DNA from: a virus
DNA length: 36,983 bases
Virus record (IMG/VR): IMGVR_UViG_3300027777_000074
Location: 1 to 36,983 of that record
Strand: one strand, 5' to 3'
Shown: in pieces, positions 21,320 through 30,667 of the stretch
Numbering within the stretch: the first letter of the stretch is position 1
Layout: the number at the start of each line of letters is the position of its first letter
Made by a program: the position numbers and the translations under genes
The notes under the pieces: model-generated
What the model was told of the DNA's origin: nothing
The model's database searches: none
The model's input: only the letters and a program-made list of their open reading frames with translations

Positions 21320-21346
21320 TGTGTGAACTTTTTTGAACTTTTTTTC
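21320..21346. repeat. AT-rich intergenic repeat, copy 1
   Basis: TGTGTGAACTTTTTTGAACT followed by TTTTTTC. It shares TGTGTGAACTTTTTT and the tandem AACTTTTTT unit with 25723-25760. Both copies lie just upstream of leftward genes, pointing to a shared regulatory function. Confidence 0.7.
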
Positions 21347-21358
21347 TAGGGACAAACC

Positions 21359-21643
21359 CTAACGTTTCCACCACTGATATTTGTGCGAGTCCCCGTGAGT
21401 GAGCACACACTCCAGAGGCTTGACAACACCGGCCGTGCCCGCGGTTGGACAGGAATAGGTCGTAACTCTTACGAACGGGCGGCTGCGTCCCCAGAGAAGG
21501 CTGCAGCGCACTCCCCACTGCCATTTTGACCGCTTCCAGTATGTGATGGCTAATCCGTATTGGCCGTCAGCGTACTCAGCCCAGCACCACCCCTCAGGAA
21601 TGACGAGGATCGTAAACCGACGTATTGTTGCTTCAATTCTCAT
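21359..21643 (-). CDS. Unknown Trp-rich protein (94 aa)
   Basis: Starts MRIEATIRRFTILVIPEGWC. It is Trp- and Arg-rich (WCWAEYADGQYGLAI, RSKWQWGVRCSLLWGRSR), suggesting a small compact beta-type fold. It overlaps the stop of the DUF3310 gene by 4 bp, so it is co-translated. No family recognised. An alternative overlapping frame (21264-21524) lacks a good ribosome site and is rejected. Confidence 0.65.
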   Translation of the reverse strand: MRIEATIRRFTILVIPEGWCWAEYADGQYGLAITYWKRSKWQWGVRCSLLWGRSRPFVRVTTYSCPTAGTAGVVKPLECVLTHGDSHKYQWWKR

Positions 21644-21852
21644 AATTCCTCAATCAGACGGTTGATGTACCAGGCGGCTTTCTTCAGATCTGTTGCTGCA
21701 TCACCCTTTAAGCCGGCCCTCGAGAGATACTTGAGTGCGTTGAGCCTGAGATACCCGCGGAACTCTTCTGGGCTCGCCTTGGCCCGCATATAGTCGATTG
21801 TCTCGATTCCGCCAGCGGTGTAGTGTGCTGGGCTGTTTACCTGGTCAGTCAT
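21640..21852 (-). CDS. DUF3310 protein (70 aa)
   Basis: MTDQVNSPAHYTAGGIETID, then EEFRGYLRLNALKYLSRAG and AATDLKKAAWYINRLIEEL. This is a clear match to the DUF3310 (SaV-like) pattern: N-S-P-x-H-Y near the N-terminus, then a G-Y-L-R-x-N-A-x-K-Y-L-x-R helix and a K-A-x-W-Y-I helix. The family is widespread in phages and has been linked to nucleotide metabolism in some named homologues, but a role here is not shown. It sits directly after the TGT-like gene. Confidence 0.88.
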   Translation of the reverse strand: MTDQVNSPAHYTAGGIETIDYMRAKASPEEFRGYLRLNALKYLSRAGLKGDAATDLKKAAWYINRLIEEL

Positions 21853-21853
21853 A

Positions 21854-22579
21854 TTATTGAAGCAGACTAAGCTGCACCGGTTGATTGTTGATGCGATTTT
21901 GAAATTTCACAGCATTGCGCCAGTCGTTTCCATCTCGACCTTCCATCCGCGCCGCGAATGACCAAGCCATTGAATCTGCCGAATAAAGATTGTCGCGTAC
22001 ATCCGCCCACGCGAGAGCTGTCGTTTTGACCCCAAACCCATGCAGCTTTAGGTCCGGCCGCGCGCCTCTGATGGCCTTCAAAACCTGAACGATGGCGCTT
22101 GGGTTGCCGTTGCGCTTACATACGCTACCAACGCCAACATATGCGTCCTTTCCGAGCCGCTCACCGTACATCTCTAGGTGTTTTAAGTAATCTTTCGGGT
22201 CGTAGCCTTGCAGAACAGGCATTATGCAGACGCCGGTGTCCTCAGCAATCAACTGATCGTACCTTTCTACTGTCAACTTCTGATGCTCGGAAACTGTCAT
22301 ACCGGTTTTTTCTAGCATCCAGGCCTCGCACATGTAATCCTGAGATACCGCAGCAATTAAGTTCCCATTGTTTTTCCATCTTTTTATTTCTTTCGCATAT
22401 TCGCTGACAGGTTCTGGATACCCGCCATATTTGTTTATGGTTGTAAAAGCCCCGCTATCCATAATCCATTCTTTTACGGGGAACCCAGATTTTCTTTTCT
22501 TTAATACATTTACAGATATGAATGCCCTATCAACTTTGTCTGCTGTATGCGCGTGAAACATACCTGTATAAAATTTCAT
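21854..22579 (-). CDS. DpdA/TGT-like base-exchange enzyme (241 aa)
   Basis: Residues follow the tRNA-guanine transglycosylase plan. D41-S42-G43-A44-F45 corresponds to the DSGG[FY] motif. SQDYMCE has D81. PVLQGYDP has Q124 and G125. AYVGVGSVCKR covers 146-156, HGFGVK covers 180-185, and SADSMAWSF has D202 as candidate nucleophile. Phage proteins with MDSGAF and SADSMAWS are, as I recall, DpdA-type enzymes that put 7-deazaguanines into DNA. It is shorter than bacterial TGT (about 370 aa) and lacks the Cys4 zinc site. No queuosine or 7-deazaguanine precursor genes are visible, so a substrate would have to come from the host. Family call fairly firm; DNA as target is inference. Confidence 0.75.
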   Translation of the reverse strand: MKFYTGMFHAHTADKVDRAFISVNVLKKRKSGFPVKEWIMDSGAFTTINKYGGYPEPVSEYAKEIKRWKNNGNLIAAVSQDYMCEAWMLEKTGMTVSEHQKLTVERYDQLIAEDTGVCIMPVLQGYDPKDYLKHLEMYGERLGKDAYVGVGSVCKRNGNPSAIVQVLKAIRGARPDLKLHGFGVKTTALAWADVRDNLYSADSMAWSFAARMEGRDGNDWRNAVKFQNRINNQPVQLSLLQ

Positions 22580-22580
22580 C

Positions 22581-22949
22581 TCATTCTAAATTTACTTTGA
22601 TCCCAATTTTGGGCAAAAGAAATAGCCTGTCTTGTTCAAACTTTCTAGTTGTGCTGAACATCCCAGCGTTGTTGACCCCATGTTCAAGTTCAATGCCAAC
22701 CGAGAATTTTTTCGTGACGTTGTACATCGCCCATGTCTTGCCAAAAACAACAACCTTCTCCTGAGGAAAACCTAGTCCAGAGTTTTTATAGGACTCTAAG
22801 AAACCGTAAATTTCAGTTTTTTCAGATGGTTTGTGGTAATGGGACAACTCAACAATATTCAAGTTTCTGTTTGGGTCAAAAAATATTGATAGATCCGTAT
22901 CGGCGTAAACTGAAGATGAAAAGCACAATAAAAAAATAAGTTTTTTCAT
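22581..22949 (-). CDS. Predicted secreted/periplasmic protein (122 aa)
   Basis: The N-terminus MKKLIFLLCFSSSVYADTDL is a clear Sec signal peptide with a likely cut after VYA (residue 17). There is no lipobox. The mature part (about 105 aa) has alternating beta-strand pattern (KTEIYGFLESY, KVVVFGKTWAMYNVT, KFSVGIELEHGV, FLLPKIGIKVNLE), as in small outer-membrane beta proteins. It overlaps the wHTH gene upstream by 4 bp and lies 1 bp from the TGT-like gene. A phage-encoded envelope protein in the early region could modify the host surface, for example for superinfection exclusion. That is only inference. Confidence 0.7.
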   Translation of the reverse strand: MKKLIFLLCFSSSVYADTDLSIFFDPNRNLNIVELSHYHKPSEKTEIYGFLESYKNSGLGFPQEKVVVFGKTWAMYNVTKKFSVGIELEHGVNNAGMFSTTRKFEQDRLFLLPKIGIKVNLE

Positions 22950-23200
22950 AAATTACCTTCGTTAATTACTTCTCTGGGCAAGTTTCGCAGGATGACTGAG
23001 TAGTCTGGTTCGACTGGCTTAGGCCTGATGCTGTAGATTGAGTGCCTGCCGCCAAGCTCGCGTTTGATGACCTGGTTAGCATCAACGAGCCGAATTAAGA
23101 TGTTGGATATTGCTTTGCGGTTTACGCCTTCAATCTTGATATCGCGCACCCGTGTCTCGCCGTTTTTCTCTAAGAAATCAAGTACGCTCTGCTGACTCAT
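22946..23200 (-). CDS. Winged-helix DNA-binding protein (84 aa)
   Basis: MSQQSVLDFLEKNGETRVRD, then VNRKAISNILIRLVDANQVI and GGRHSIYSIRP. It shows the compact helix-turn-helix plus wing pattern (TRVRDI...NRKAISNILIRLV...wing). It likely binds DNA as a small regulator of the early region. It overlaps the next upstream gene by 23 bp and the secreted-protein gene by 4 bp. Confidence 0.75.
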   Translation of the reverse strand: MSQQSVLDFLEKNGETRVRDIKIEGVNRKAISNILIRLVDANQVIKRELGGRHSIYSIRPKPVEPDYSVILRNLPREVINEGNL

Positions 23201-25704: not shown

Positions 25705-25727
25705 ACACAGAATTTTTCGTCCTGTGT
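25705..25727 (-). promoter_or_regulatory. Inverted repeat upstream of the 104-aa gene
   Basis: ACACAG and CTGTGT form a perfect 6-bp inverted repeat with an 11-nt spacer, partly overlapping the AT-rich repeat. It could be an operator, placed about 60-80 bp before the start of the 104-aa gene. Confidence 0.45.
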
Positions 25728-25760
25728 GAACTTTTTTCAACTTTTTTCAACTTTTTTTTC
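25723..25760. repeat. AT-rich intergenic repeat, copy 2
   Basis: TGTGTGAACTTTTTTCAACT then TTTTTCAACTTTTTTTTC. Contains three AACTTTTTT units against two in copy 1 (21320-21346). Its left part is upstream of the 104-aa gene, and its right part encodes the last residues of the 55-aa gene. Confidence 0.7.
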
Positions 25761-29638: not shown

Positions 29639-29903
29639 ACAGTCAGCGGTTCTTGAATTAGAGGCCGCAAAGACAGACCAAGTGAAAGCAAAGACAAGCA
29701 AGTTTTTTGAGAAAGTTATAGACAAGTCCGGGCTGACAGGAACGTCTCGGCAGGTCATGTTGTTGAGTGAGCCAATTTCTGTGGACATCTCAATTCGGGT
29801 TCCGATCCAGGCGTTTACAGATCACAAGGCCCTCAACGCAATTGAACGGAAATTGTCTGAGGAATGGGGCGTTCAGGTCTTCTTGATCACGAGGACCAAA
29901 TGA
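29622..29903 (+). CDS. Unknown helical-beta protein (93 aa)
   Basis: ATG 29622 (MDFTDEQSAVLELEAAKTDQ) follows a GAGGG site and overlaps the preceding gene by 17 bp; an ATG four codons earlier is less well placed. A helical N-terminal half rich in Lys and Glu leads to a beta-type half with LLSEPISVDISIRVPIQAFT and ending VQVFLITRTK. It overlaps the FkbM gene by 4 bp. Not recognised. Confidence 0.65.
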   Translation: MDFTDEQSAVLELEAAKTDQVKAKTSKFFEKVIDKSGLTGTSRQVMLLSEPISVDISIRVPIQAFTDHKALNAIERKLSEEWGVQVFLITRTK

Positions 29904-30667
29904 GTAAGATCTCCGGCATCGAAGCTAGAAATGGCAAGTTCTTGTACCCAACCAATGACACTTACATCGGGAAGTGCATGGAGGTTTATGGTGAGTGGGA
30001 AGAAGAGCTTGTACAAAAATGCCTAAAAATCGTTCCACCAGGCGGTGTTGTTGTTGAGGTTGGCTCAAACATCGGCACGCACACTGTACCCATTGCGAGG
30101 CACGTAGGCGATACGGGAAAAGTTTATGCAATTGAGCCGCAGAGACTGATTTTTCAAATCCTTTGCGCTAACTTGGTTTGCAACGAGGTGTTTAACGTTG
30201 ATGCCTATCATGCCGCGGCAGGAGACAAGCCTGGCTCGGTGATTGTGCCAGACCTAGATATTGGCCTTGAGTACAACTTTGGTGCGGTCAGGGTTGCTGG
30301 GCAGGAGGGGGTAAATGTCCCTCTTATGACCGTTGACAGCCTAAATCTTGAACGGTGCGATCTGCTGAAGGTGGATGCAGAAGACTTTGAGCCGCAGGTT
30401 TTGCTAGGTTCGTTCAAGACCATTGAAGCTCACAAACCTGTCATATATTTAGAGTATAACCCCCACGTTAGAAGCACTATAGATTTTTACATTAAACAGT
30501 TCCTGCCGCATTACAGGGTATGGAGTTGTAATGAAGTGATTTATAAGGCTAATAACTACTTTGAAAGCACAGAAAACCATTACGAAAACATTCACTCACT
30601 TGGGATTATACTTTCCACGCGAGAAATCGCCGGTGTAACCGATTCACTTGAGGCTTTAGTAATTTAA
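29900..30667 (+). CDS. FkbM-family SAM-dependent methyltransferase (255 aa)
   Basis: The start is ATG 29900 (MSKISGIEARNGKFLYPTND), overlapping the previous stop. SAM motif I is VVEVGSNIGTHT (51-62), with the acidic post-I residue E79 in VYAIEPQ. LLKVDAEDFEPQVLLGS is the FkbM C-terminal signature. FkbM enzymes methylate sugars or hydroxyl groups on small molecules and polysaccharides. In phages the family is common and its target is usually unknown. It could act on host surface sugars, phage fibres or a DNA base derivative, all inference. Confidence 0.85.
   Translation: MSKISGIEARNGKFLYPTNDTYIGKCMEVYGEWEEELVQKCLKIVPPGGVVVEVGSNIGTHTVPIARHVGDTGKVYAIEPQRLIFQILCANLVCNEVFNVDAYHAAAGDKPGSVIVPDLDIGLEYNFGAVRVAGQEGVNVPLMTVDSLNLERCDLLKVDAEDFEPQVLLGSFKTIEAHKPVIYLEYNPHVRSTIDFYIKQFLPHYRVWSCNEVIYKANNYFESTENHYENIHSLGIILSTREIAGVTDSLEALVI

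What the first reader, a model, noticed from the sequence alone, without database searches (positions are those of the whole stretch)
21854..22579. DpdA/TGT-like enzyme without precursor genes
All expected TGT-type active-site motifs are present (D41-SGAF, D81, Q124-G125, D202 in SADSMAWS), but no queC, queD, queE or folE homologue is visible. The gene may scavenge a host 7-deazaguanine such as preQ0 or a derivative and insert it into phage DNA to evade restriction. A shortened enzyme lacking the tRNA zinc site would fit DNA as target.
Basis: partly seen in the sequence, partly recalled or inferred. Interest (0 to 1): 0.7.

Follow-up and report, generated by a model that had tools for sequence, protein, structure and literature searches.

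The report
Phage DNA-base-swapping enzyme in accessory cassette
A freshwater phage carries an enzyme (DpdA) that probably swaps guanine in its own DNA for a host-made or imported 7-deazaguanine base to hide from bacterial defences, and the gene sits in a small come-and-go cassette next to an undescribed exported protein and, in a sister phage, a base-importer gene.

Summary
Window 21854-22579 (minus) encodes an intact 241-aa DpdA-family protein (Pfam PF23859, E 3e-41; predicted fold, top PDB hit the DNA preQ0 insertase DpdA, 7UI4). The catalytic residues are invariant in 46 homologues, and it has the histidine equivalent to His196 of phage 9g DpdA. It is not a tRNA TGT (no PF01702 match, no zinc cysteines). 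No folE, queD, queE, queC or transporter gene was found in the window, nor in a syntenic 54-kb relative that covers the ~16 kb this record lacks. DpdA-only phages are a published class, so this part is not new.

New here: dpdA and the adjacent gene for an undescribed 122-aa exported protein form an accessory cassette. A ~95%-identical phage contig has an exact empty site. A sister phage carries a preQ0-transporter-family gene (PF02592) in the same slot, and unrelated phages carry the same pair. All nine known copies of the exported gene lie beside a dpdA, of two divergent types. Across viral contigs 74 of 79 phage PF02592 genes directly adjoin a dpdA. This supports base salvage rather than synthesis. 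Modification of this phage's DNA is untested; DpdA-only phage Orion had none in a host lacking preQ0.

The parts
21854..22579 (-). dpdA: DpdA-family 7-deazaguanine DNA transglycosylase, 241 aa
   Evidence: PF23859 E 3.1e-41; PHROG 1279 E 1.3e-61; AlphaFold pLDDT 91.7, best PDB match 7ui4 DpdA
22457..22459 (-). codon of Asp41 (DSGAF motif; by analogy with TGT the general base)
   Evidence: invariant in 46 homologues and kept in phages 9g and 7-11
22040..22042 (-). codon of His180, aligned with His196 of phage 9g DpdA
   Evidence: invariant in 46 homologues; 9g position 196
21974..21976 (-). codon of Asp202 (by analogy with TGT the nucleophile)
   Evidence: invariant in 46 homologues
22581..22949 (-). 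122-aa exported beta-rich protein (signal peptide, six predicted long strands); partner gene of dpdA
   Evidence: 9 of 9 known contigs including the window have it beside a dpdA of one of two types; low-confidence model, pLDDT 58; no Pfam hit, no PHROG hit
21854..22970 (-). extent of the accessory cassette, about 1.1 kb (exported gene + dpdA)
   Evidence: near-identical contig L147 joins window positions 22971 and 21853 with 10 nt between; also empty in L149, L151, L152
22946..23200 (-). 84-aa weakly MarR-like gene, upstream flank of the slot
   Evidence: conserved flank in L001, L002, L147, L149-L153; PHROG 1687 E 5.5e-4
21640..21852 (-). 70-aa nucleotide-kinase/DUF3310-like gene, downstream flank of the slot
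   Evidence: PHROG 236 E 7.7e-30; conserved flank

Best explanation
The gene encodes a true DpdA. During infection it most likely exchanges guanine in phage DNA for a ready-made 7-deazaguanine base (preQ0 or a derivative such as preQ1) taken from the host's queuosine pool or from outside the cell, shielding the DNA from restriction. It is part of an accessory cassette gained and lost as a unit with a gene for a small exported protein; a sister phage adds a preQ0-transporter-family gene in the same slot. Shown here: family, predicted fold, conserved catalytic residues, absence of synthesis genes, cassette structure, empty site, linkage to transporter genes. Inferred: the base used, insertion into DNA, protection, and any role of the exported protein in uptake.
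For: Family. Fold. No synthesis or transporter genes in the window and 54-kb relative, 9g control positive for the synthesis genes. Purifying selection. Empty site and gain/loss as a unit. Same exported+dpdA pair in an unrelated backbone (L004, L005, L007) and beside another DpdA type (L307, L308, L311). PF02592 gene in the same slot in sister phage L002. All six PF02592-type genes in the loci of this DpdA type lie next to dpdA, rough p 2e-5. Phage PF02592 genes adjoin a phrog_887-type dpdA in 74 of 79 loci and 70 of 78 such dpdA genes have one, against 1 of 80 control loci with each gene. 31 of 37 bacterial genomes with this dpdA type also have full-length queC; all nine checked have TGT. Literature: 7-11 and MED16 DNA contain dADG, CAjan delta-dpdA loses modification and restriction protection (PMC6884629, PMC8306585).
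Against: The closest tested comparison, phage Orion, showed no 7-deazaguanine (PMC6884629), and this DpdA type persists in about 390 mycobacteriophage records whose host lacks the pathway. Modification in DpdA-only phage 7-11 was only about 0.02% of G. The window itself has no transporter, only 6 of about 130 loci of this DpdA type do (not significant against control by frequency, p 0.26), and its host is unknown. The queC count is weak because queC is common in bacteria.
Confidence: 0.6

Rival explanations
1. Conditional or idle DpdA: the enzyme is genuine, but in its usual host no suitable base is available, so the DNA is mostly unmodified; the gene is kept because some hosts supply the base.
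For: Orion unmodified and 7-11 modified at only about 0.02% of G (PMC6884629); presence/absence polymorphism in one phage lineage.
Against: Very strong purifying selection; transporter linkage implies that supply is secured in many relatives.
Confidence: 0.2
2. The enzyme inserts a base other than preQ0/preQ1, or a pre-modified one, scavenged from elsewhere.
For: Persistence in mycobacteriophages whose host has no Q pathway (PMC6884629); MED16 and 7-11 carry dADG, not dPreQ0.
Against: The linked transporters match PF02592, the known preQ0/preQ1/queuine transporter family (PMC11130926).
Confidence: 0.1
3. The enzyme acts on host or phage tRNA rather than DNA.
For: TGT fold; 'queuine tRNA-ribosyltransferase' annotations.
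Against: DpdA family not TGT family; DpdA-specific histidine; no zinc site; the nearest solved fold is the DNA enzyme.
Confidence: 0.05
4. The phage makes its own precursor from genes in the part of the genome missing from this record.
For: The record is incomplete, about 16.5 kb shorter than its relative.
Against: The syntenic relative has lysis, tail, virion and glycosyltransferase-like genes there and no queC, queD, folE or radical-SAM match.
Confidence: 0.04

Closest known systems
[quoted passage not shown] PMC6884629) and Pantoea phage MED16 (PMC8306585)
   Same: dpdA without folE/queD/queE/queC; dependence on host or exogenous preQ0 proposed
   Different: phage 7-11 has the other, phrog_887-type DpdA, and MED16's DpdA is related to that type; none is described with the exported partner gene or the empty-site cassette
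Seuratvirus-type clusters (CAjan, Enterobacter phage EC151; PMC8310023)
   Same: dpdA plus a preQ0 transporter in one cluster
   Different: those phages also encode folE, queD, queE, queC; here the window has dpdA plus the exported gene only, and relatives have dpdA plus transporter with no synthesis gene seen nearby
Bacterial/eukaryotic tRNA-guanine transglycosylase (PF01702)
   Same: predicted fold and catalytic Asp motifs
   Different: no PF01702 match, no CxCxxC...H zinc site, much shorter
DNA preQ0 insertase DpdA of PDB entry 7ui4
   Same: top structural match
   Different: target 413 residues against 241; 14% identity; TM-score 0.59 by query

Membership tests
DpdA | match to the DpdA profile (PF23859) above its cut-off | tested here: met
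   141.7 bits against cut-off 27
DpdA | TGT-like fold, closest to solved DpdA | tested here: met
   pLDDT 91.7; best PDB hit 7ui4, E 2e-8
DpdA | two catalytic Asp (D41, D202) and the conserved His (9g His196) | tested here: met
   invariant; H180 aligns with 9g His196
DpdA | inserts preQ0 into DNA | not testable with these tools
   needs LC-MS or an in vitro exchange assay
DpdA2 | lacks the conserved histidine | tested here: not met
   H180 present
tRNA-guanine transglycosylase (PF01702) | match to the TGT profile | tested here: not met
   no match in the window; control genomes ring 14 of 14
tRNA-guanine transglycosylase (PF01702) | zinc site of three Cys and one His near the C-terminus | tested here: not met
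   no Cys after D202; 0 of 46 homologues have three
DpdA-only phages (group 3 of PMC6884629) | no folE, queD, queE, queC in the genome | tested here: met
   none in the window or the 54-kb relative, 9g positive; caveat: record incomplete
phages with a preQ0 transporter (Seuratvirus/EC151 kind) | PF02592 gene in the phage | tested here: not met
   none in the window; present in sister phage L002

The most novel reading that the evidence does not exclude
An import-and-insert salvage cassette: the exported 122-aa protein helps 7-deazaguanine bases cross the cell envelope of the infected host, a PF02592 permease (in sister phages) moves them across the inner membrane, and DpdA puts them into phage DNA, so that the phage feeds on environmental modified bases instead of making them.
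Probability: 0.2. Interest if true: 0.75.

Novelty: new variant of a known kind. Interest (0 to 1): 0.5.

Why it matters
DpdA-only phages are the largest class of putative 7-deazaguanine phages in the 2019 survey, and where their base comes from was left open; Hutinet et al. 2019 saw no correlation between phage YhhQ homologues and any phage group. The near-complete linkage of PF02592 transporters with dpdA seen here makes the salvage idea directly testable, including in cultured enteric and Acinetobacter phages. The natural with/without-cassette pair and the undescribed exported partner give concrete handles on function.

Tried and rejected
PADLOC and NCBIfam gave nothing useful. Sequence searches of PDB found no homologue; only fold comparison did. 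An iterated transporter profile drifted into DnaB helicases and was discarded, replaced by a curated six-seed profile. A first scan of transporter loci with only the window-type DpdA profile found no dpdA and nearly led to rejecting the link; adding the 7-11-type profile reversed this. Palindromic hexamers are less avoided in the window (0.82) and its relative (0.69) than in a dpdA-less relative (0.58), but three genomes with unknown hosts prove nothing. The exported-protein model is low confidence and its fold hits are not significant. No DNA-level relative in the annotated phage collection for the first 25 kb, so the host is unknown. Recorded absence of the 7-11 type in the window relatives had no positive control in that call, though a profile from the same alignment works elsewhere.

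Full report
What is there. The ORF at 21854-22579 on the minus strand is intact, 241 aa. It matches Pfam DpdA (PF23859) with 141.7 bits and PHROG 1279, and it does not match the tRNA TGT profile. D41, D81, Q124, G125, H180 and D202 are identical in 46 homologues. D41, D81, H180 and D202 are also kept in phage 9g DpdA, a proven DNA enzyme, and in Salmonella phage 7-11; Q124-G125 is not. H180 falls on His196 of 9g, the residue whose absence marks DpdA2 (PMC6884629). There is no cysteine after D202, so the TGT zinc site is missing. The AlphaFold model is confident (pLDDT 91.7). Its best PDB match is the DNA preQ0 insertase DpdA, 7ui4 (E 2e-8, query TM 0.59). The gene is under strong purifying selection (dN/dS about 0.02-0.05).

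No precursor genes. Profiles for QueC, QueD, FolE and radical SAM find nothing in the window while phage 9g is positive each time. The window is a fragment. A syntenic viral contig of 54 kb (G001/L008, dpdA 86% identical) aligns along its whole length and shows about 16.5 kb missing from the window, made of lysis, tail, virion and glycosyltransferase-like genes; G001 is negative as well. A preQ0-transporter-family gene (PF02592) is also absent from the window and G001.

The cassette. dpdA sits in a tight run of minus-strand genes directly after a 122-aa gene with a signal peptide (22581-22949). Contig L147, about 94-96% identical in DNA to the window on both sides, lacks exactly these two genes: window position 22971 is joined to 21853 with 10 nt between. 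L149, L151 and L152 are also empty there; L150 and L153 carry another small ORF instead; none of these records has this dpdA elsewhere. L002 carries a PF02592 gene (E 8e-10), then the exported gene, then dpdA, in the same slot. Contigs L004, L005 and L007, whose other genes are unrelated to the window, carry the same exported gene (about 72% identical) and dpdA (about 88%) side by side. A search for the exported gene found eight viral contigs; five have the window-type dpdA next to it and three have a different DpdA, of the type in Salmonella phage 7-11. One of those (L311) has exported gene, dpdA and PF02592 gene in a row. The exported protein has no Pfam match and no PHROG match; its model is poor (pLDDT 58) but shows six long strands, with insignificant resemblance to small outer-membrane barrels.

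Linkage with transporters. PF02592 (YhhQ/QPTR) is the known family for import of preQ0, preQ1 or queuine (PMC11130926). Among loci of the window's DpdA type, six have such a gene and all six are adjacent to dpdA, although the frequency (6 of about 130) is not above the control rate. Starting instead from the transporter of L002, 79 further viral loci were fetched: 74 have a 7-11-type dpdA directly beside it, and four of the other five are cut off at the contig end. Starting from that dpdA type, 70 of 78 loci have the transporter. In 80 control phage loci chosen by a RusA gene there was one of each. Eight of ten cultured phages inspected show the pair, for example PEAT2, AB3P2, Phc and Lg3. The 7-11 type falls in the same PHROG (887) as the 9g enzyme, and MED16, whose DpdA is related to it, has dADG in its DNA (PMC8306585). 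These loci are related to each other, so the p-values overstate independence, and synthesis genes were not searched for in all of these transporter-bearing contigs. Transporters next to dpdA were already known in phages that also have synthesis genes (EC151, PMC8310023); in the 2019 survey no correlation with a phage group was seen (PMC6884629).

Hosts. The window's host is unknown. In 37 bacterial genomes that hold a window-type dpdA, 31 have a full-length queC (one with an in-frame stop). Of the six without, all have TGT and four match PF02592, some of which may be phage copies. This is consistent with a base pool in the host but is weak, since queC is common.

Reading. The best reading is a DNA transglycosylase that uses ready-made 7-deazaguanine. 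The main doubt is that Mycobacterium phage Orion, of cluster B1 by my recollection, had no modification in a host without preQ0, and B1 phages, which carry a DpdA but no preQ0 genes (PMC9584339), appear to carry this same DpdA type: the 68-69 kb mycobacteriophages (PMC6884629 for Orion). The part that is not in the literature available to me is the accessory cassette with its exported partner and the near-complete linkage of phage PF02592 transporters with dpdA.

Noticed in passing
window 21320-21344, 25723-25757; relatives L149, L151, L152, L153, L001: A dispersed repeat (TGTGTGAACTTTTTT...; up to ~115 nt in relatives) recurs between early genes of these phages, possibly a repeated regulatory element.
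   Followed up: no
IMGVR_UViG_3300027708_000713 (L080 and L302/L324): One viral contig carries both a window-type dpdA and a 7-11-type dpdA with adjacent PF02592 transporter, about 7 kb apart.
   Followed up: partly
L398:2429-3696 (phage mEp021), L399:2438-3702 (MagusPhagus): A PF02592-like membrane protein gene overlaps a DNA methyltransferase gene instead of a dpdA, in phages without a detectable dpdA in that stretch.
   Followed up: no
L050:6765-7751 and eight similar loci (Phenylobacterium/Caulobacter and rhizobial genomes): A PAPS-reductase-like PP-loop protein gene is recurrent about 3 kb upstream of window-type dpdA; it could be an unrecognised QueC-like step.
   Followed up: no
L037, L053, L055 (Geminisphaera colitermitum): Three window-type dpdA genes in one bacterial genome without full-length queC or queD but with TGT and a PF02592 match.
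   Followed up: partly
window 29864-30667 (+): FkbM-type methyltransferase in the early plus-strand operon, conserved in relatives.
   Followed up: no
G001 42290-50308: A 2672-aa virion-region protein with a very long serine-rich low-complexity stretch in the 54-kb relative.
   Followed up: no
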